Below are positions 17,371 through 61,630 of a stretch of DNA of 64,000 bases, one piece after another. The DNA lies in contig JAUSJX010000076.1 of the NCBI GenBank assembly GCA_030647435.1, positions 1 through 64,000 of the forward strand, given 5' to 3'. The notes under the pieces are model-generated. The model worked only from the letters and a program-made list of their open reading frames with translations, did no database searches and was not told where the DNA came from. A program made the translations under genes and the position numbers. Numbering within the stretch: the first letter of the stretch is position 1; the number at the start of each line of letters is the position of its first letter. The stretch is from Candidatus Rokuibacteriota bacterium. Its GTDB lineage: Bacteria > Methylomirabilota > Methylomirabilia > Rokubacteriales > CSP1-6.

Positions 17371-17465
17371 GGCGACGGCCCGCGAGTATACATTGTCCCC
17401 GGATTGCGGCTCGGCTATCATCCGGGCACCGTCAGCACCAACCCCGGCCTTCCTGGAGGATGCAC

Positions 17466-19139
17466 ATGGCTCGACTCGACATCGTCAACCCCGTCGCTAC
17501 CTGCGTCGAGCAGTCGGTCAAGCCGGCTGCTCGTCAGCGCGATCTCTCCAACGCCACCGTGGGGCTGTACTGGAACATGAAGTCAGGCGGCGATGCCGCG
17601 CTCGACCGCGCGGAACAGCGCCTCAGCGAGCGCTTCCCGGGAATGCGCTTCCGCCGCTACACGGGCTCAGTCGGGTTCATCATGCGCCACGCCACGGCCG
17701 ACGATGCCGACCGGATGGCCTCCGAGGTGCAGGCCGTGGTGGGCACCACAGCGGACTGAGGGTCCTGCACGTCGTGGGGTGCCCACGACATGGTGGAGAT
17801 GGAGCGGCGAGGGATCCCGACCGTGCTCTTCACGGCCAAGACCTTCGTCCACGACGCCGACCGAAGCGCGGCAAGCTTCGGCCTGCCGGGTCTGCCGCTG
17901 GCGGTGGTGCCGCTGCCGTTCACCAATCAGCGGCCTGAGGACATCCACCGGATGGTGGACGACGCCTTCGACCAGGTGGTGGCGGGCCTCACCCGTGATG
18001 TGGAAACGCCCGAGCGCTCCGAGGCGCCGCCGGCCGAGGAGACCCTCGCCTACGAGGGCACGGACCTGCTCGAGGCGTGGGAACGGATGAACCAGGACTT
18101 CCTCAAGCGTGGATGGTCCGACGGCTTCCCCCTGGTGGCGCCGACCAGGGCCGCGCTCGAGGCCATGCTAAAGGGCACACGGCGCGGCGCCGGCGACGTG
18201 ATCGCCACGCTCGAGCCCGGCTTCGGCCTGGCCACCGTGGAGAAGCTGGCGGCGAACGCGGTCATGGCGGGCTGCCGTCCCGCGCACCTGCCGCTCCTGA
18301 TCGCCGCCGTGCGCTGTCTCGCCGAGCCCAAGATGTATCTCCGCAACAAGGCCATGTCGACAGGACCCCATGCCCCGCTCGTGCTCGTCAACGGCCCGCG
18401 CGGCCGGGAGGCCGGCCTCAACTCGGGGATGTGCGCCCTCGGCCCCGGCGCCCCGTCGGCCTCCAACACGGTCCTCGGGCGCGCGCTGCGCCTCGTCATG
18501 ATGAACGTGGGGCACACGTACGTGGGCGTCTCCGACATGGACACCATCGGCTCGCCGCTGAAGTACAGCCTCTGCTGCGCCGAGAACGAGGCCCAGAGTC
18601 CATGGGAGCCCTACCACGTGGCCGCGCGCGGCCTCGCCCGCGAGGCGACCGCCGTCACCGTCCACTTTGCCTACGGGATGTGCGAGCTCCACGATTTCAG
18701 CAGCACCACGCCCGAGGGCCTCACCGAGGTGTTCGCCACCGCGGCCACCAACGTGGCCCAGGTGGGCACCGCGCTCTGGCTCATCGGCCGTCGCGCCGAC
18801 CCGCGCTACAAGACGGAGGAGAAGGAGCACAACATGCTCTTCATCTGCCCCGAGCACGCCCAGATCTTCGCCCGGGCCGGCTGGGGGCGGCGGCAGATCC
18901 AGGAGGCGCTCTATCGGCTGGCGCGCCTGCCCTTCCGCACCGCGATGCTCAACAAGGAAGCCAAGGCCATGGCCGCGGCCCACCCCGAGCTGGGTTTTCT
19001 CCACGACCACCCGGATCTGCCGATCCCCGTCGTCGAGACTCCGGACTGCTTCGACATCGCGGTCGTGGGCGGTGCCGCCGGGCGGGGCGCCTACTTCTAT
19101 GGCGCGGGTGAGCCCGTCACGATGCCCGTCGAGGAGTGA
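17466..19139 (+). CDS. UGSC-family selenoprotein fused to a large C-terminal domain
   Basis: One frame of 557 residues if TGA 17757-17759 is read as selenocysteine (codon 98). The ATG at 17466 is favoured because GGAGG (17455-17459) is 6 nt upstream; the ATG at 17460 abuts it. Residues 1-95 are a small alpha/beta domain ending GTTAD. Then comes U-G-S-C-T-S-W-G-A-H-D, the UGSC motif that names the family, and ERRGIPTVLFTAKTF. From ~190 onward is a second domain (RGWSDGFPLVAPT, ANAVMAGCRPAHLPLL, CCAENEAQSPWEPYH) homologous to the separate protein at 42636-43727. A stem-loop at 17771-17789 fits a bacterial SECIS. Reaction unknown; a redox role of the Sec/Cys pair is inferred. Confidence 0.88.
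17771..17789 (+). promoter_or_regulatory. Candidate bacterial SECIS hairpin (UGSC selenoprotein 1)
   Basis: GTCGTGGG (17771-17778) pairs perfectly with CCCACGAC (17782-17789), starting 11 nt after the TGA. Counting only the lower seven pairs, the five-base apex is GGTGC, which contains the GU of bacterial SECIS loops. Confidence 0.7.
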
Positions 19140-42635: not shown

Positions 42636-43727
42636 CTAGCGCTTGAGGTCGGTGATGCTCCGCAAGGGCGTCCCGTCCCTGCGCGCGATGGGGCGCCGCA
42701 CCGGCGCGGTCTGATCGCCGAAGGTCGGCTGCCAGCAGGAGTGCTTCCCGGCCCCGCCGACGACGATCACCGAGATGTCCTCGGGCGATCTGACGATCGG
42801 CAGGAGGGTATCGGGCGAATCCACCGCGTGCCGGTCGTCAACGTGCAGGCGCCGGTACTCCTCGCCGAGCCGGCCGAGCGGAAAGCGCGCGTGCTCGAAG
42901 ATGAACTCCTTGACCTGTCGCTTGGTGTAGCCGTCGCCCGCGATGGTGGCGGCGTGCTCGGGCCCGAGCGATAGCAGCGGGTGGCCAAAGGCGAGGAGGT
43001 TGTTACTGCCAGCCTGGCCCATCGCGCCGGCGATGATCTTGAGGACCCCCAGACCCGTGTAGCTGTAGTGGTCCTGGATGTTGTGCGGGCCCTCGCAGCC
43101 GATCGCGGTGACGGTGCTCACGTCGGCCGGGAAGCCGTGCTCCACGTGGAGCGGCTCCCACGGATTCGCCGCTTCGTTCTCCGCCACGCAGTAAGCGATC
43201 TTGGCCGGGCTGCCTTGGGTGGACCGATCACCGGTCCCCGGCAGCCCGCCGCCCACGTTCATGAGCAAGAGCCGCACGGCGCGGCCGATGGTCATGTTGG
43301 CGCGGAAGCCCTGGCCGAACGCGTTGTAGCCCGCGTTGATCTCGAGCTCGCGCGCGATGGGGCCGTTGACGATGATGAGCGGCGCCACGGGATGCGTCGT
43401 GGCCTGGATCGAGTCGAGGTTGAAGGCCGGATCCGCGAGGGCTTCGATGGCGGTGATGACGACCGGCAGGTACTCGGGCCTGCAGCCCGCCATGACGGCG
43501 TTGACCGCGATCCGCTCGACCGTGGCCTCGCCCTGCCGCGGCGGCAGGACGGCAACGACGTCGCGCGGCTCGCGGTCCGTGAACCGCAAGGACTCGCGCA
43601 CGAGGTCGTCCGTGGGCGGAACGATCGGAAGCCCGTCGGTCCAGCCGCGCTCCTGGTAGAGGCGGTTGATGGCCGTGTAGGAGCCGTCCAGGCGAAAGGT
43701 CTTGGCCGCGGGGCCCGGCGCGGTCAC
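42636..43727 (-). CDS. Partner protein of the split UGSC selenoprotein locus
   Basis: 363 residues homologous along its length to the C-terminal domain of the fused selenoprotein at 17466-19139. Shared blocks are RGWTDGLPIVPPT, VNAVMAGCRPEYLPVV, PLIIVNGPIARELEINAGYN, MTIGRAVRLLLMNVGG and VAENEAANPWEPLH. A C-terminal block (SVIVVGGAGKHSCWQP) also corresponds to VVGGAAGRGAYFY in the fusion. No known cofactor motif is visible. The start overlaps the UGSC gene stop by 4 nt (ATGA), so the two subunits are made together. Reaction unknown; a complex with the selenoprotein is strongly suggested by the fusion elsewhere in the window. Confidence 0.8.
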   Translation of the reverse strand: MTAPGPAAKTFRLDGSYTAINRLYQERGWTDGLPIVPPTDDLVRESLRFTDREPRDVVAVLPPRQGEATVERIAVNAVMAGCRPEYLPVVITAIEALADPAFNLDSIQATTHPVAPLIIVNGPIARELEINAGYNAFGQGFRANMTIGRAVRLLLMNVGGGLPGTGDRSTQGSPAKIAYCVAENEAANPWEPLHVEHGFPADVSTVTAIGCEGPHNIQDHYSYTGLGVLKIIAGAMGQAGSNNLLAFGHPLLSLGPEHAATIAGDGYTKRQVKEFIFEHARFPLGRLGEEYRRLHVDDRHAVDSPDTLLPIVRSPEDISVIVVGGAGKHSCWQPTFGDQTAPVRRPIARRDGTPLRSITDLKR

Positions 43728-44254
43728 GCCTTGGTCACCGCGCGAACGACGATATCGATGACGAGGTCCGCCTTGCGCACGACCTCCTCCTCACGGATGC
43801 CGCCCAAGGGATGCGGGATGAGGGCAAGAGGCAGGTCGGCGAGACCCCGGTTCCGTGCCTCGAGCGTGGCCAGCGTCTCGAACTCCTTGGTGCCCATGAC
43901 GACGGTCGGGATGCCGTGCTGCTCCAGCACGATGGCGCCGTGGATACTCCACGACGTGCACGACCCTCAGTCGGCGCTGCCGACCAGAACGAAGTCGCAC
44001 GTCGTCAGATCGGCGAGAATGGCGGGCGAGGGCGGCCCCGCGATGCCCTTCTCGCGCTTGACGACGTCGCGGACGCCGTAGCGCTCCTTGAGACGCTGGA
44101 CCACCGCCAGCATCAGCGTGCCGGCGTTGGCCTTGCTGTTGTCGAGGATGCCGGCGCGCGTGCCTTCGAGGCTCGCCAGCCGCGGCGCCAGCCCCGCGGC
44201 CAGGATCCGCGGCTCGGCCGTCGGGTCGTACAGCAGATCACCCTTGTCGGTCAT
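43724..44254 (-). CDS. UGSC-family selenoprotein (stand-alone)
   Basis: 176 residues if TGA 43969-43967 is selenocysteine (codon 96). The ATG at 44254 is chosen because AGGAG lies ~8 nt upstream. EGTRAGILDNSKANAGTLML, then ATCDFVLVGSAD-like sequence (TCDFVLVGSAD) lead to U-G-S-C-T-S-W-S-I-H-G, then EQHGIPTVVMGTKEFETLAT and LALIPHPLGGI. The same motif and spacing occur in the fused protein at 17466. A stem-loop at 43937-43955 begins 11 nt after the TGA. It overlaps the partner gene downstream by 4 nt. Function unknown; the Sec and nearby Cys make a redox or thiol-dependent step likely. Confidence 0.88.
43937..43955 (-). promoter_or_regulatory. Candidate bacterial SECIS hairpin (UGSC selenoprotein 2)
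   Basis: On the minus strand GTCGTGG (43955-43949) pairs with CCACGGC (43943-43937), six Watson-Crick pairs and one G-U, around the loop AGTAT. Compared with the hairpin at 17771-17789, the base pair closing the loop changes from G-C to A-U, a compensatory change. Confidence 0.7.
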
Positions 44255-46841: not shown

Positions 46842-47765
46842 GTGAGCGGCAAAGATCGCATCACCGGTGTCCTCTCCCCCGTTGTCACCCCCTTCAAGGC
46901 CGACCTCACCCCTGATCCGGAGCGGTTCGCGCGGCAGTGCCGCTGGCTGCTCTCCCAGGACGTGGGATTGGCGGTCTTCGGGACCAACTCGGAGGCCAAC
47001 TCGCTCTCCACCGACGAGAAGGTCGAGCTGCTGGACCGCCTGGTGGGCGCGGGTGTGGACGCAGGCCGGATGATGCCGGGCACCGGCTGCTGCGCGCTGA
47101 CCGACTCGGTGCGGCTGACGGCGCACGCGATGAAGCTCGGCTGCGGCGGCGTGCTCATGCTGCCGCCCTTCTACTACAAGGGCGTCTCGGACGACGGGCT
47201 CTTCAAGAACTTCGCGGAGGTGATCGAGCGCGTCAGCGACCGTCGGCTGCGGATCTACCTGTACCACATCCCGCCGGTCTCTCAGGTGGCGATCACCCTT
47301 CCTCTCATAGAGCGGCTGCTCAAGGCCTACCCTGGCATCATCGCGGGCGCCAAGGATTCCTCCGGCGACTGGAACAACACGCAGGCGTATCTCGACAACT
47401 TCGCCAAGCAGGGCTTCGACGTCTTCCCTGGGAGCGAGACCTTCCTGCTCCAGGGCATGCGCGGGGGCGGCGTCGGCTGCATCAGCGCTACAGCCAACGT
47501 CAACCCGAGGGCGATCGCGCGGCTCTTTGCGACGTGGCGGGCGGCGGACGCCGACACGCAGCAGGAGCGTCTGAACGAAATCCGCGGCATCTTCGCCAAG
47601 CATCCGATGATCCCGGCCCTCAAGGCCGCCATCGCGCATTACGGCGGCGACGCGTCCTGGGTGACGGTGCGCCCGCCGCTGGTGGAGTTGACGCGGGAAC
47701 AACAGACGGCCCTGGCGGCTGACCTCGACGGCGCCGGCTTCACCATGCCAGGGTTGAAAGGCTGA
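46842..47765 (+). CDS. DapA/dihydrodipicolinate synthase family lyase-aldolase
   Basis: 307 residues from a GTG at 46842 with AAGGAG 9 nt before it. [40 protein letters not shown], the tyrosine in [12 protein letters not shown] and the Schiff-base lysine in [13 protein letters not shown] are the family's catalytic residues. Class I aldolases of this group split or form 2-oxo acids. It is followed 1 nt later by the IorA-type gene, so it may supply or use the oxidoreductase's product. True DapA is unlikely because of that context. Confidence 0.87.
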
Positions 47766-47766
47766 C

Positions 47767-48237
47767 ATGGCCACGTTCGCGCTGATCGTCAACGGCAAAA
47801 CCTGCCAGATCGATGCCTCGCCCGACATGCCGCTGCTGTGGGCGATCCGGGAGCAGGTCGGGCTCACCGGCACCAAGTTCGGCTGCGGGGCCGCGCACTG
47901 CGGCGCCTGCACCGTGCACGTGGACGGCAAGGCGGTCCGCTCGTGCAACGTGTCCGTCCTCGAGGCGACGGGCAAGAGGATCACCACGATCGAAGGCCTC
48001 TCCGACAGGACCGACCATCCCGTGCAGAAGGCGTGGATCGAGATCGACGTGCCCCAGTGCGGTTACTGCCAGTCGGGACAGATCATGTCCGCCGCGGCGC
48101 TCCTCGCGGAGAAGCCCTCGCCGACGGACGCCGATATCGACCGCGCCATGAGCGGGAACATCTGCCGCTGCGGGACCTACACGCGCATCCGCGCCGCCAT
48201 CCACCGCGCGGCCCAGATGAAGAAGGGAGGCGCGTGA
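47767..48237 (+). CDS. 2Fe-2S subunit of an IorAB-type oxidoreductase
   Basis: 156 residues with two [2Fe-2S] clusters: [20 protein letters not shown] with RSCNVS, and [18 protein letters not shown] with [12 protein letters not shown]. The [10 protein letters not shown] form is typical of isoquinoline 1-oxidoreductase alpha subunits rather than xanthine dehydrogenase. It overlaps the large subunit by 4 nt (GTGA). Confidence 0.9.
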
Positions 48238-50393
48238 TAGCTACCGCGCGGGGGAAGATCAGCCGCCGGACCCTTCTGAAAGGTGGGCTCGCTGTGGGGG
48301 CGGGCCTCGTCGTGGGCTTCCAGGTACCGCTCGCGGGCCGCACGGCCTCGGCGCAGCAGTCGCCGGGGCTCTTCACGCCCAGCCAGTGGATCACGATCGA
48401 CCGCAACGGCCTCGTTACCTTCATCAACTCCGTAGTCGAGATGGGCCAGGGGTCGCTGACGACCATGCCGATGATCGTGGCCGACGAGCTCGATGCCGAC
48501 TTGGGCCGCCTCAAGGTCCAGCAGGCGCCCGCCAACCCCGCGCTCTACGCCAACCCGGTGACGAAGTCGCAGTCCTACGGCGGCAGCCGCGGCGTGCGGG
48601 ATCATTTCCAGATGCTACGCAAGGCGGGGGCCGCCGCGCGCGAGATGCTGATGCAGGCCGCGGCCAACGAGTGGGGCGTGGCCGTGGCAGAGGTGACGAC
48701 GGAGCCCGGCGTGGTCATCCACAGGCCGACGGGGCGGCAGCTCCAGTACGGCCAGCTCGTCGATCAGGCTGCCCAGCTGCCGGTGCCGCAGAACCCCAAG
48801 CTCAAGACGCCCGACCAGTTCCGCTACATCGGCAAGATCGTCGGGCGGCGCGATACGCCGCTCAAGGTCAACGGCAGCGCGATCTTCGGCGCGGACGTGC
48901 AGGTGCCGGGGATGCTCACCGCGTCGATCGAGCGTAGCCCCGTTTTCGGAGGCGAGGTGAAGAACTTCGACGCGGCGGCGGCCAAGCGCATCAAGGGCGT
49001 CTCACACGTGATCAAGGTGTCGAACGGCATCGCGGTCGTGGCCGATTCCTTCTGGACGGCGCTCCAGGGCCGCAAGGCGCTCAAGGTCACGTGGGACGAG
49101 GGATCGCTCGCCACGCTGAGCAGCGAGCGGATCAGCAGCGGCTACAAGACCGCGTCCTCCCAGCCTGGACAGGAAGCGCGGAGGGACGGCGACGCGGGCA
49201 AGGCGCTCGCCTCGGGCGCCAAGATCGTCGAGGCCGTCTACGAGGTGCCCTTCCTCGAGCACGCTTGCATGGAGCCGATGAACGCGACGGCGCACGTGCG
49301 CCCGAATTCCTGCGAGATCTGGGCGCCGACGCAGAATCCCGGCGGCACTCAGGCGACGGGTGCTCGCCTGACGGGGCTACCGGCGAACAAGGTGATCGTC
49401 AACACCACCTTCCTCGGCGGCGGCTTCGGCCGGCGCGGTGAGCAGGACTTCATCACCGACGCGGTCGAGACCTCCAAGGCCGTGGGCAAGCCCGTCAAGG
49501 TGATGTGGACGCGCGAGGACGACATCCAGCACGGCTTCTACCGCCCGGCGACCTACAACGTCTTCAAGGCCGCACTCGACGACAAGGGCATGCCCGTCGC
49601 GTGGTGGAATCGCATCGTGGGCCCGGGGCTCCAGGTCCAGAAGGGGCGCGTGCCGGCGTACAGCCTCGACGCGACGGCGCTCGCGGGCGCGCGCGACATG
49701 CCCTACGACGTGCCGAACGTCCTTGTCGAGTGGGTCCACAAGGACTTCGGCATCCCGGTGGGCTTCTGGCGCTCGGTCGGCTCCTCGCAAAACATCTACA
49801 TCGTCGAGGGCTTCGTGGACGAGCTGGCGCACGCGGCGGGCAAGGACCCCTTCGAGTACCGCCGAGCGCTCTTAGGCAAGTCACCCCGCCACAAGGCGGT
49901 GCTCGAGCTGGCGGCGCAGAAGGCCAACTGGGGCGCGCCGCTGCCGGCCGGCCGCGCGCGCGGCATCGCCGTCGCCTTCTCGTACGGCAGCTATGCGGCC
50001 CACGTTGCCGAGGTTTCCGTGGCACCCACCGGCAAGGTGCGCGTCCACAAGATCGTGGGCGCCATCGACGCGGGCATCGCGGTCAACCCCGACCAGGTCA
50101 AAGCCCAGATGGAGGGCGGCGCGATCTACGCGCTGACCTCCGTCTTCTACGGCGAGATCACCATCGACCGCGGGCGCGTGAAGCAGTCGAACTTCCACGA
50201 CTACCGGATGCTGCGGATCGACGAGGCGCCCGAGATCGAGGTGCACATCCTGGACTCGGGCGAGGCGCCGGGCGGGCTCGGCGAGCCGGGCGTGCCGACG
50301 GTGGCGCCGGCCGTGTGCAACGCGATCTTTGCCTTGACGGGCAAGCGCATCCGCAAGCTCCCGCTCGAGCCTTACGTAGCCAGGCGCGCGTAG
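48234..50393 (+). CDS. Molybdopterin-dependent large subunit, IorB type, Tat-exported
   Basis: 719 residues from the GTG at 48234. A twin-arginine signal ([20 protein letters not shown]) shows that the folded enzyme is exported with its partner. Family motifs: [60 protein letters not shown] and the glutamate in [18 protein letters not shown]. No FAD subunit gene is present, as usual for IorAB or aldehyde dehydrogenases that pass electrons to cytochromes. It oxidises N-heterocycles or aldehydes in the periplasm. This is the second molybdenum hydroxylase of the window. Confidence 0.9.
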
Positions 50394-50417
50394 CCCGGGA
50401 GCGGTGCAGAGCGCGCG

Positions 50418-50864
50418 CTATTGGCTCGGCGGCCCCGGGGGCGGTGGCGGCGCGGCAGGCACCCAGACCCATTGGTATGCGACGGTCACGCCGTCCCCCT
50501 GGAGACGGTAGCACCCGCCGACGTAGCAAACCTCCCGCTGGACTGGCGGGGCCAGGTACTCCTGCGTCTGCGGCTGATAGGCCGGAACGGGCACGTAGAC
50601 AGGCTCCCGGTAGACCGGGTACGGATACCCATAGGACCGGTAGTACGGGTACGCGTAGTACGGGTAGGCGAGCACCGAGCCTAGGAACAGCCCGCCGACG
50701 AAGGCACCACCCCAACGGGAGCCGCGATGAAAGCCGCCTCCAGGATGGAAGCCCCCATGCCCACCTTGGAAGCCACCCCCGTGTGCCCTGCCCGCAGACA
50801 CCGGGGCGGCGAGCGCGAGGGATAACATCGCCGCAAGGGCGAGACTGAAGATCTTCTGGATCAT
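50418..50864 (-). CDS. Small exported Gly/His/Tyr-rich protein
   Basis: 148 residues: signal peptide MIQKIFSLALAAMLSLALAA, then PVSAGRA, a Gly/His segment (HGGGFQGGHGGFHPGGGF), a hydrophobic stretch (GGAFVGGLFLGSVLAYPYY), a Tyr/Pro-rich segment and a C-terminal piece VCYVGGCYRLQGDGVTVAYQ, then WVWVPAAPPPPPGPPSQ. Similar small surface proteins occur in groups; this one has two Cys close to the end. No function can be assigned. Confidence 0.65.
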   Translation of the reverse strand: MIQKIFSLALAAMLSLALAAPVSAGRAHGGGFQGGHGGFHPGGGFHRGSRWGGAFVGGLFLGSVLAYPYYAYPYYRSYGYPYPVYREPVYVPVPAYQPQTQEYLAPPVQREVCYVGGCYRLQGDGVTVAYQWVWVPAAPPPPPGPPSQ

Positions 50865-50913
50865 AGGGCACCTCCCCTAGTGACTTCTCAATTACACCAG
50901 CCGGCGGCAGCTG

Positions 50914-51474
50914 CTAGCGCGCAGGCCCAGGCGGCGGTGGCGGCGGCGGCCCGGCGGGCGGTGGCGGCACCCCCGGAGGCGGCGGTGGTGGCGGAGGCGG
51001 CGGAGGCGCCGATGACCTGTATCCCGGCTGCAGGCCCCTAGAGACCGGAACCTGATTGCCGTTGGCGTACATGCACTGCACGTACGCGATGTCGTAGCGC
51101 CTCTGTACCGAGATGCCGGCGCCGTAGGCATTGCCGGCGCCCACCATCGTCCCGCCGAGGAGTCCAGCGCCTGCGCCCACGGCCGCGCCGGTTGCCGGGC
51201 TACCCGAAGCGGCACCGATGGCAGCCCCGAGCCCGGCGCCGACCACCGTGCCGACCACCGCGCCTGTCACGGTGCTGGCCGCCCCGGCTTGGTTGGGCGT
51301 GATGCCGGTCTGCTGCAGCGCCCACTGCCGGCACAGCGCGTCATCAGCCTGGAACTGATCGAAGTTCTTCCCGTTGCCCGGCAGCACCATGACGCTCGGC
51401 CCCGTAGGCACCGTCGCGCACGCCGTCAGCAGGAGCGAGGCGCTGACCGACACGATGACCCTTTTCGCTGTCAT
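50914..51474 (-). CDS. Lipoprotein with glycine-zipper domain and polyproline tail
   Basis: 186 residues from the ATG at 51474. VIVSVSASLLLTAC is a signal with lipobox (LTAC). The domain DDALCRQWALQQTG precedes a glycine zipper (GAVVGTVVGAGLGAAIGAAS, then GAAVGAGAGLLGGTMVGAGN), then YDIAYVQCMYANGNQVP. The last 40 residues are runs of up to eleven prolines. Glycine-zipper lipoproteins sit in the outer membrane. It overlaps the upstream gene by 4 nt. Confidence 0.78.
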   Translation of the reverse strand: MTAKRVIVSVSASLLLTACATVPTGPSVMVLPGNGKNFDQFQADDALCRQWALQQTGITPNQAGAASTVTGAVVGTVVGAGLGAAIGAASGSPATGAAVGAGAGLLGGTMVGAGNAYGAGISVQRRYDIAYVQCMYANGNQVPVSRGLQPGYRSSAPPPPPPPPPPPGVPPPPAGPPPPPPPGPAR

Positions 51475-51821
51475 GGCGCCCTCGGTGAGACCTTTACCCA
51501 CGGCTCAGGGCAGCTTTGGACCTGTGGGTAATAGCCTTGGGCGCTCGGGCAGTAGTACCAGTAGACCGGCGTGGCCGGGGGCAACGGCGCCTGCTGGACG
51601 TAGATCGGGGGTTCCTCGACGATGACCTGTGCGGGCGGGTAGTAATACGGCGGATACGAGTAGTACGGATAGGGCGGACCCCACCAGAACGCGGGCCCGA
51701 CCTCGATAAAGACGGCGCCCCCTCCACGATGGTGCCAAGCGTAACCCGGTGCGGCATGGAGGACCAGGAGTCCAACCACCAACCCTACGACCAGGAGCCA
51801 TATCCAGGCTGGCCTTCTCAT
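51471..51821 (-). CDS. Small exported Tyr/Pro-rich protein
   Basis: 116 residues from the ATG at 51821, preceded by AGGAGG. The hydrophobic signal (WIWLLVVGLVVGLLVLHAAP, then GYAWHHRGGG) is followed by FWWGPPYPYYSYPPYYYPPA and a conserved end VYWYYCPSAQGYYPQVQSCP. YYC...YYPxVxxC with P-W-V is common in small proteobacterial exported proteins of unknown function. It is translationally coupled to the lipoprotein gene. Confidence 0.72.
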   Translation of the reverse strand: MRRPAWIWLLVVGLVVGLLVLHAAPGYAWHHRGGGAVFIEVGPAFWWGPPYPYYSYPPYYYPPAQVIVEEPPIYVQQAPLPPATPVYWYYCPSAQGYYPQVQSCPEPWVKVSPRAP

Positions 51822-52020
51822 GACCGCCTCCTGCGAAGAACCATAGCCAACTACCCTCAGGATACAGCCAAGCACACCTCAACGCCACTCAAGCATGGCA
51901 GGCGTCCACGAAGGTGAGGTGAGCCGCGGGTAAACCGGAATTCCCCGGTCTCGTGCGCGACGAGGCGAGCGCACGTCGGCCGTCATCACGGCGTACGCCG
52001 ACGGCCCCGCCGGACTCGCT

Positions 52021-53412
52021 CTAGTCGACCTTCGGGTGGCGCGTGTGCCAGTCTGTCAGCGACTGGTACGCCCGCGCCCCGGCGAGGATGGTGTTCTCCT
52101 CCCAAGCGCGCCCCATAAACTGGATGCTCGTGGGCAGCCCCCGCGCGCCGAAGCCGTTGGGCACGCAGACGGCGGGCAGCCCTGCGCCGTTGCCGACGGC
52201 GCCCATGACGTCCTTCGCGGTGGCGCGGATCGCGCTCCTGAACTCCTGGCCGAGCACCGGCGCCTCGTTGGTCCGCCCCGGCGCCACCAGCGCGTCGAAG
52301 CTCCCGAGCACGCGGTCGATCTCCCTCGCCATAACGCCGCGGAGCCGCATGGCCTTGACGTAGTCCTTGGCGAGGATGGCGTCGCGCGCGTATGGCGTAT
52401 GGCGGTCCTCGGGCGCGGTCAGCCCGGCGATCCCGCCCGATTCGATCAGGTCCTCGAAGGCGGCCGCCGCTTCGACCTGGAGAATGGTCCGCGTGATCTG
52501 CTCGTACGGCAGGTCGGGCAGCGTGATCTCCTCCACCGTGCCCATCTTCCTCAGCACTCCCAGAGACCGCGCGAAGTTCTCGGTGACGGCGTCCTCGCAG
52601 CCGTCAGTGACGTTCGTGATGACCCCGAAGCGGAACCCCTTGCGATCAGCGGCGTCGTAGCGGTACGGCCGGTCGCTCGCGGTCGGATCCTTCGGATCCC
52701 GCCCGGCCATCGCATCGAGGACCAGGCCGCAGTCGTCCGCCGTCTGGGCGAGCGGCCCCAGCTTGTCGAGAGTCCAGCAGAGCGCCATGGCGCCGTGGCG
52801 GCTCACCCGCCCGTACGTCGGCCGCAGGCCCACGAGGCCGCAGTAGCCGGCGGGCGAGAGGATGGAGCCCCACGTCTCCGATCCGATCGCGAACGGAACA
52901 AGTCCGGCGGCGACGGCGGCGCCCGAGCCGCTCGACGACCCGCCGGTCCACGCGTTCGCGTCCCATGGGTTGATGCAGGGCCCCGTGAACGACGCGGTGG
53001 GCTGGCGATAGCCCATGCCGCCAGCGAGCTCGATCATGGCGAGCTTGGCCACGAGCACGGCGCCCGCCTCCTCGAGCTTGCGGATCACCGTCGCGTTGAA
53101 GTCGAAGCGCTGGTCCTTGTACGGCGCGGCGCCCCAGGTCGTCGGCGCGCCCGCCGTCGCGAGGAGATCCTTCGCGCCGTACGGGATGCCGTGGAGGGGC
53201 CCGCGGTAGAGGCCCGCCGCGATCTCGCCCTCGGCGCGCCGCGCCTGGCTGAGCGCGTGCTCGCGCATGACGGTCACGACGGCGTTGTACTTGGGACCGA
53301 GGCGCTCGAGGCGATCGAGATAGAGCTCGGCGAGCTCGACGGGCAGGAGCTTCCGCGTCTTCAGGAGGGCACCCAGCTCGCGGAGCGGCGTGAAGAGCAC
53401 CTCCGCCTTCAT
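52021..53412 (-). CDS. Amidase signature enzyme
   Basis: 463 residues with the complete Ser-cisSer-Lys triad: Lys in GIPYGAKDLLATAGAPTTWG, cis-Ser and Ser in NAWTGGSSSGSGAAVAAGLV and GSETWGSILSPAGYCGLVG. It hydrolyses an amide bond in the cytoplasm. The gene is the last of a six-gene minus-strand operon with hydantoinase subunits, overlapping the 70-residue gene by 4 nt, so it probably completes the breakdown of a cyclic or linear amide. Confidence 0.9.
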   Translation of the reverse strand: MKAEVLFTPLRELGALLKTRKLLPVELAELYLDRLERLGPKYNAVVTVMREHALSQARRAEGEIAAGLYRGPLHGIPYGAKDLLATAGAPTTWGAAPYKDQRFDFNATVIRKLEEAGAVLVAKLAMIELAGGMGYRQPTASFTGPCINPWDANAWTGGSSSGSGAAVAAGLVPFAIGSETWGSILSPAGYCGLVGLRPTYGRVSRHGAMALCWTLDKLGPLAQTADDCGLVLDAMAGRDPKDPTASDRPYRYDAADRKGFRFGVITNVTDGCEDAVTENFARSLGVLRKMGTVEEITLPDLPYEQITRTILQVEAAAAFEDLIESGGIAGLTAPEDRHTPYARDAILAKDYVKAMRLRGVMAREIDRVLGSFDALVAPGRTNEAPVLGQEFRSAIRATAKDVMGAVGNGAGLPAVCVPNGFGARGLPTSIQFMGRAWEENTILAGARAYQSLTDWHTRHPKVD

Positions 53413-61088: not shown

Positions 61089-61630
61089 CGCACCCCTGCC
61101 TTCCATGTCGTTGGAGGCGTTGCCGACCAGTAGGGCTCCTTCGCTCCACTGGCATGACCCCGCTTCCCCGCTACTACGAGCCCGTCCTCCACCCTCTCGC
61201 CTTCCGCCCACTTCCCAGGGACACTGGTTATAGAGCGTACCTGGCTCCGCCGCTTTCCCGGCGGGACGAGGAGGGCTTCTCCAGTTGCTCGGCGCGTCCT
61301 GGTCACCGTGCTGTCGCTCCTACCCCGCCGGAGTGCCCCGCCGCGTCAGCCACGCTGCGACGGGTCATGCGGCCTTCGCCCTCTGCATGCGGGCTCGGCC
61401 TCCGGGGTTTGGTCCTTTCGGGGCCTGCTCGGCGTTCACTCACGTTACGGCCCGGTGACTCACTCACCACCCTTTCGATGGCTTTGTCGGTGGGCTTCAG
61501 GGCCTTGATCTCTCTCCGCCCTGCCACCCGAGTTACGGGGGGTTGGCTTTTCCCCCGGCGGGTCTGCCTCCCGCTGAACGCGCCAGCCTTCACTGGACGC
61601 ACATGCAGATGGGCCCTTATCGGCGGCCTG

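What the first reader, a model, noticed from the sequence alone, without database searches (positions are those of the whole stretch)
17466..19139. UGSC selenoprotein fused to its partner domain
The frame is continuous through TGA 17757, which is followed by GGG TCC TGC, giving U-G-S-C. This is the motif that defines the UGSC family of (seleno)proteins (established knowledge). Here the UGSC domain and a ~350-residue second domain are one polypeptide, while at 42636-44254 they are two overlapping genes. The fusion is Rosetta-stone evidence that the two parts act together. Conventional gene callers would split this gene into two wrong ORFs (17460-17759 and 17790-19139).
Basis: partly seen in the sequence, partly recalled or inferred. 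Interest (0 to 1): 0.82.

Follow-up and report, generated by a model that had tools for sequence, protein, structure and literature searches.

The report
Selenium enzyme fused to partner domain
This gene reads through a UGA codon as selenocysteine and joins a selenium-containing domain, related to the active part of glycine and proline reductases, to a partner domain that normally comes from the gene next door; such fusions have been reported before, but the partner has no family name and the function is still unknown.

Summary
Window 17466-19139 is one frame of 557 residues with a single in-frame TGA (17757), giving U-G-S-C. The genome has tRNA-Sec, SelA, SelB and SelD. It carries 12 UGSC genes, and all 12 have TGA at the aligned position. 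A hairpin 11 nt after UGA covaries. All 24 aligned copies of the fusion (window plus 23 orthologs) have TGA in that column. Among named genomes, 80 of 84 UGSC genes that cover the site have TGA and 4 have Cys; no other residue occurs. The partner domain sits within 500 nt of UGSC in 83 of 93 cases, in either order, and is fused in 34. The link is therefore real, but the fusion is widespread, and a UGSC/"Unknown_1" fusion was reported in 2008. New here: the UGSC domain is a remote relative of the Sec domain of GrdB/PrdB (profile-profile E 4e-10, Sec on Sec). Its predicted fold is flavodoxin/B12-like, not thioredoxin-like as suggested in 2008. The partner has no Pfam or NCBIfam model and no confident PDB fold match. 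I infer a GrdB-like Sec reductase for a small organic substrate. Substrate and electron donor are unknown.

The parts
17455..17459 (+). GGAGG, Shine-Dalgarno-like, 6 nt before ATG 17466
   Evidence: read from the sequence
17466..19139 (+). fused UGSC-partner selenoprotein gene (557 residues, Sec98)
17466..18020 (+). UGSC domain (residues 1-185), predicted flavodoxin/B12-binding-like alpha/beta fold
   Evidence: PF24696 residues 6-176; model; fold comparison
17757..17759 (+). Sec codon TGA of the U-G-S-C motif
17771..17789 (+). bacterial SECIS-like hairpin, 8 bp with GTG loop, 11 nt after the Sec codon
18033..19136 (+). partner domain (residues 190-557), family without a Pfam or NCBIfam model
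   Evidence: model
43724..44254 (-). second UGSC gene of the window, separate from its partner, also with in-frame TGA
43967..43969 (-). Sec codon TGA of the second UGSC gene
43936..43956 (-). SECIS-like hairpin of the second UGSC gene
42636..43727 (-). separate partner gene of the second UGSC, overlapping it at GTGA

Best explanation
17466-19139 encodes one selenoprotein, made by reading UGA 17757 as selenocysteine. Its N-terminal UGSC domain is a remote relative of the Sec domain of the GrdB/PrdB (protein B) reductases. It carries the likely catalytic pair Sec98-Cys101 at the N-terminus of a helix that follows a strand of the central sheet. The C-terminal partner domain is a near-obligate companion, supplied by a neighbouring gene in most paralogs. 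It probably binds the substrate or closes the active site. Inferred cycle: the selenolate attacks a bound small organic (acid-like) substrate, a bond is cleaved reductively, a Sec98-Cys101 selenenylsulfide forms, and a thioredoxin-type donor resets it. Shown at sequence level: the Sec codon, SECIS-like hairpin, Sec machinery, homology to GrdB/PrdB and physical linkage to the partner. Inferred: catalysis, substrate type, the partner's role and the electron donor.
For: One TGA in 12 of 12 paralogs; TGA/Cys exchange, 80 and 4 of 84. tRNA-Sec with anticodon TCA, SelB over its cut-off, SelA read by eye, SelD over its cut-off. Hairpin covariation: 13 both-sided cells, 0 of 500 shuffles reach the score. 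GrdB link: profile-profile E 4.1e-10, probability 96.7%, Sec column on Sec column, against 0.03 for reversed GrdB. In NCBIfam, 42 of 42 UGSC members match NF041046, and the next five families are all protein-B reductases (TIGR01917 in 8 of 42, best E 2.1e-6; TIGR04483 PrdB in 2 of 42). Two domains in one confident model: pLDDT 90.7, pTM 0.92. Linkage. Catabolic or uptake co-directional neighbours: TctC 15, Amidohydro_2 7, MmgE_PrpD 3 of 116.
Against: No substrate, activity or peptide is known. Neighbours of the fused gene are not conserved: no tblastn hit of the window's neighbours in the 24 ortholog loci L094-L117 with flanks of up to 1.5 kb. The partner shows no reliable homology to the GrdB N-terminal part (47 columns, probability 34.6%), and none of 58 partner sequences has a convincing Pfam hit. 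TctC receptors are numerous in Betaproteobacteria (recalled), so their count may be background. Cys forms occur in a cultured haloarchaeon and an actinobacterium, so Sec is not essential in every lineage. The GrdB comparison tests one pair of profiles only.
Confidence: 0.55

Rival explanations
1. A thioredoxin-like selenoprotein for thiol redox or antioxidant work, as the 2008 survey supposed; the partner is an accessory domain.
For: UxxC motif; [quoted passage not shown]
Against: The model's UGSC part matches flavodoxin, B12-binding and Mmp7-type alpha/beta folds (VIA Z up to 11.1); no thioredoxin chain is among the 50 rows shown. Profile matches go to protein-B reductases. The MAGC cysteine of the partner is Ala in two fused paralogs of this genome.
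Confidence: 0.15
2. The partner domain is the catalyst (hydratase-, lyase- or cyclic-amide-hydrolase-like) and UGSC only supplies reducing power or regulation.
For: The partner has 25 invariant columns in 14 own-genome copies. Its weak fold matches are fumarate hydratases and Toblerone-fold hydrolases.
Against: All those matches are weak (best Foldseek E 0.010, best Z 6.0). UGSC is the part with a reactive Sec and known catalytic relatives.
Confidence: 0.2
3. UGA 17757 is a true stop; two ORFs are made, and the rest of the frame is chance or a decaying gene.
For: Table 11 gives two ORFs.
Against: TGA kept in 24 of 24 aligned copies, with purifying selection on both sides; Cys in 4 of 84 relatives at that site; Sec machinery present; hairpin covariation.
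Confidence: 0.02

Closest known systems
UGSC family (Pfam PF24696, NCBIfam NF041046)
   Same: Motif, length and TGA position; 119.5 bits against the Pfam cut-off of 25.
   Different: Below the NCBIfam cut-off (103.3 against 125); carries an extra C-terminal domain of about 350 residues.
UGSC/Unknown_1 fusion of the GOS survey (PMC2398784, Fig. S1A)
   Same: A UGSC selenoprotein fused with an unknown domain, reported in 2008 (passages).
   Different: Cannot be compared: the supplementary figure was not readable here. Homology of UGSC to GrdB was not among the passages seen.
Protein B of glycine/sarcosine/betaine reductase (GrdB) and PrdB of D-proline reductase
   Same: Sec domain homologous by profile, Sec on Sec, with the following ...E..GIP/GLP... 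segment.
   Different: Scores far below the curated cut-offs (TIGR01917 19 against 602 bits); no detectable GrdB N-terminal part; the partner matches no Pfam model.
McrC-like protein Mmp7 of the MCR activation complex (PDB 8s7v chain H; chain identity inferred from its length)
   Same: Best VIA match of the UGSC domain, Z 11.1, rmsd 2.9, 131 aligned.
   Different: Common alpha/beta arrangement; B12-binding folds follow at Z about 10; 11% identity. No claim of kinship.

Membership tests
UGSC family (seleno)protein | Match to Pfam PF24696 above its cut-off | tested here: met
   119.5 bits against 25
UGSC family (seleno)protein | Match to NCBIfam NF041046 above its cut-off | tested here: not met
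   103.3 bits (fusion) and 107.1 (domain alone) against 125; filed under the Pfam family PF24696, not as an NF041046 equivalog
UGSC family (seleno)protein | U-G-S-C (or C-G-S-C) at the conserved site | tested here: met
Bacterial selenoprotein gene | In-frame UGA followed by a SECIS-like hairpin | tested here: met
   11 nt spacing; 88.9% of cells paired in 12 paralogs against 21-47% when slid; 57 non-redundant sites 80.3% paired, 0 of 1000 shuffles as high
Bacterial selenoprotein gene | SelA, SelB, SelD and tRNA-Sec in the genome | tested here: met
   SelA only by eye
Bacterial selenoprotein gene | Se shown in the protein | not testable with these tools
   none
GrdB/PrdB protein-B reductase | Curated score of TIGR01917/TIGR01918 (PrdB TIGR04483) | tested here: not met
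   Weak matches only, best 19.2 bits against 602.2 for TIGR01917
GrdB/PrdB protein-B reductase | Homologous Sec domain with Sec in register | tested here: met
   hhalign E 4.1e-10; reversed control 0.03
UGSC/Unknown_1 fusion (2008) | Partner equals Unknown_1 | not testable with these tools
   Supplement not available; only main-text passages were read
Mmp7/McrC-like fold | Specific structural kinship | tested here: inconclusive
   Z 11.1 but a common fold

The most novel reading that the evidence does not exclude
UGSC plus partner is a distinct and widespread class of Sec-dependent reductases: a stand-alone protein-B Sec domain paired with a so far unnamed, possibly new-fold substrate domain. 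It has diversified into paralog sets (12 UGSC and 14 partner copies in this genome) for different small organic substrates, and works without the GrdE-type pyruvoyl subunit of glycine reductase.
Probability: 0.35. Interest if true: 0.75.

Novelty: new member of a known kind. Interest (0 to 1): 0.52.

Why it matters
[quoted passage not shown] A defined, near-obligate partner, a fusion that fixes the stoichiometry in one chain, Cys versions in a cultured actinobacterium and a haloarchaeon, and a link to the glycine/proline reductase Sec domain make its chemistry directly testable. The partner family is common yet has no Pfam or NCBIfam model.

Tried and rejected
True stop at 17757: rejected on conservation, Cys exchange and machinery. 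Thioredoxin fold for UGSC: not supported by the model. Partner as GrdB N-terminal domain: hhalign 47 columns, probability 34.6%, rejected. Partner related to UGSC: E 0.79, no. PDB sequence search with the partner (best E 0.52) and with the UGSC profile (best E 0.16, FtsZ): nothing. PHROGs: nothing. Fold of the partner alone: best Foldseek E 0.010, best VIA Z 6.0, which does not show a new fold. Conserved gene neighbourhood of the fused gene: none found. SelB in Cys-form genomes: none over the cut-off in 3 of 4 (present in the MAG of L127); in TGA-form genomes over the cut-off in 6 of 9, one more just below (233.9 against 242.25), and two without a SelB-like match, both MAGs. Hairpin in Cys forms: still partly pairable, 5 to 7 of 9 pairs, so the hairpin alone does not separate Sec from Cys forms.

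A first alignment of partners (A2) held one row in a wrong frame (L060); it was corrected in A4. In one search two ortholog loci were left out: L113 (partial) and L118 (frame broken); both carry UGSC. One search printed nothing because of a faulty pattern and was replaced.

Full report
What is there. With TGA read as Sec, window 17466-19139 is a single frame of 557 residues with Sec at position 98 in D-U-G-S-C-T-S-W. Residues 6-176 match Pfam UGSC (PF24696) at 119.5 bits against a cut-off of 25. NCBIfam NF041046 gives 103.3 bits, below its 125-bit cut-off. The remaining 350 or so residues match no Pfam or NCBIfam family. The second window copy (42636-44254, minus strand) has the same two parts as genes overlapping at GTGA, and its UGSC also carries TGA. 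The window lies in a 5.8 Mb, 98% complete genome. A Candidatus Rokubacteria MAG as nearest named relative of the second partner (L134, 81%) suggests that phylum (inference).

Is UGA read as Sec. The genome has tRNA-Sec with anticodon TCA (71.3 bits), SelB (380 bits), a SelA-like gene between them (read by eye) and SelD, which itself contains a TGA. It has 12 UGSC genes over the Pfam cut-off, each with exactly one TGA; two further matches at 13 bits, below the cut-off, have none. At the aligned site the 12 read UGSC in nine, UGAC in two and USTC in one. In 95 genomes of the phylum, 72 have UGSC, and every row listed shows one TGA; the list was cut by the tool. For the fusion itself, 24 of 24 aligned sequences (the window and 23 orthologs at 55-81% identity; two incomplete loci left out) have TGA there, and pN/pS is 0.43, 0.32 and 0.31 before the codon, after it and in the partner. 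In 80 loci from named genomes, 84 UGSC hits cover the site: 80 TGA, 4 Cys (Nonomuraea corallina, an Actinomycetes MAG, Natrialba asiatica, a Sphingomonas MAG), none other. These loci are the best 80 of 576 found with the partner profile, so they are not a random sample. SelB is missing over the cut-off in 3 of the 4 Cys genomes and present over it in 6 of 9 TGA genomes tested.

SECIS. A hairpin begins 11 nt after UGA at the same place in most paralogs. In 12 paralogs 88.9% of the cells of a 9-pair stem are standard pairs, against 21-47% when slid; 13 cells changed on both sides, and 0 of 500 shuffles reach the covariation score. RNAalifold finds the six inner pairs, four of them with compensatory change. 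In 57 non-redundant sites 80.3% are paired, and 0 of 1000 shuffles are as high. The minimum energy of single sites is not extreme (z -0.8 to -2.0). Cys versions still keep 5-7 of 9 pairs, so coding constraint contributes to the pattern.

The partner. This genome has 14 partner domains: three fused to UGSC (window, C137:29550, C29:100561), nine within 1 kb of a UGSC and two without one nearby. In the named loci 83 of 93 partners have a UGSC within 500 nt on the same strand, 68 with UGSC first and 15 with UGSC second, and 34 are one frame with it. On a tree of 114 partners the window's copy lies in a set of 23 rows, all fused (97% SH-aLRT), with Chloroflexi, Betaproteobacteria and Actinobacteria. 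Fused versus separate needs at least 9 changes by parsimony with the 12 'alone' rows left out; well-supported branches force only 2. None of 58 partner sequences has a convincing Pfam or NCBIfam match. The partner model is confident (pLDDT 95.2), but the best PDB matches are weak (Foldseek E 0.010, VIA Z 6.0). That neither shows nor excludes a new fold.

What UGSC is. The fused model has pLDDT 90.7 and pTM 0.92, so the two domains are predicted to pack as one body; a high score is not proof. Sec98 precedes the helix 99-114 that follows strand 90-94. The UGSC part matches flavodoxin-, B12-binding- and receiver-like folds, best a chain of the MCR activation complex, probably the McrC-like Mmp7, at Z 11.1, not a thioredoxin fold as guessed in 2008 (PMC2398784, passages). 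By sequence, the relatives that stand out are protein-B reductases: TIGR01917 in 8 of 42 UGSC members, best E 2.1e-6, and PrdB in 2 of 42. The Pfam GRDB model stops just before the Sec. Reading on through TGA in 19 GrdB-like genes of this group, all 19 continue with U-G. Aligning these with UGSC gives E 4.1e-10 and 96.7% probability, Sec on Sec; the reversed control gives 0.03. In reviews seen as passages, UGSC stands as a separate family of unknown function. I found no statement of the GrdB link in the passages read from the papers listed by searches for UGSC with selenoprotein, UGSC alone, and UGSC with SAR202; whole texts were not read.

Mechanism. GrdB binds glycine and releases ammonia (PMC13188914, passages). 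A GrdB-like pair was proposed for fluoroacetate C-F cleavage (PMC10838667, passages). By homology, the Sec of UGSC most likely attacks a small organic substrate and the UxxC pair closes to a selenenylsulfide that a thiol donor resets. The partner, being near-obligate and well conserved, most likely shapes the substrate site. Co-directional neighbours (116 genes from the 80 loci) are often catabolic or uptake genes, with TctC receptors in 15, amidohydrolases in 7, and MmgE/PrpD and luciferase-like enzymes in 3 each, which fits small organic acids but is weak evidence. The fused gene has no conserved neighbours.

Verdict. The find is a well-supported member of a known selenoprotein family and of a kind of fusion reported in 2008. 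What raises it above routine is the near-obligate unnamed partner, the paralog expansion (12 copies, the most among the 95 genomes of the phylum) and the GrdB/PrdB relation, which gives a testable mechanism.

Noticed in passing
window 61440-61576 (-): Group II intron RNA (Rfam RF02003, 111 bits); its ORF was not examined.
   Followed up: no
G000 contig C106, L208 (about 47718-52286 of the contig): A GrdB-like gene and a GrdA selenoprotein (NF040748, 189.7 bits, cut-off 130; TGA inside) lie about 4 kb apart, so the genome probably has a glycine/sarcosine/betaine-type reductase as well.
   Followed up: partly
19 loci among L203 and L210-L231: Pfam GRDB (PF07355) ends just before the Sec; a 'no stop inside' result with that model hides the TGA. 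All 19 genes examined go on with U-G.
   Followed up: yes
G000:C98:94090-95046: SelD of this genome contains an in-frame TGA, i.e. is itself a likely selenoprotein.
   Followed up: no
L063 (C29:14670) and L064 (C156:27840): Two partner genes in this genome with no UGSC detected near them.
   Followed up: partly
L177:6027-6857 and two more loci of the neighbour set: DUF6282 genes directly beside UGSC-partner pairs in 3 of 116 co-directional neighbours, including the Cys-form pair of Natrialba.
   Followed up: no
L123:2614-7858: The Cys-form fusion of cultured Nonomuraea corallina lies between GntR/FCD and IclR regulators and a glyoxalase-family gene: a cultured place to look for the substrate.
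   Followed up: partly
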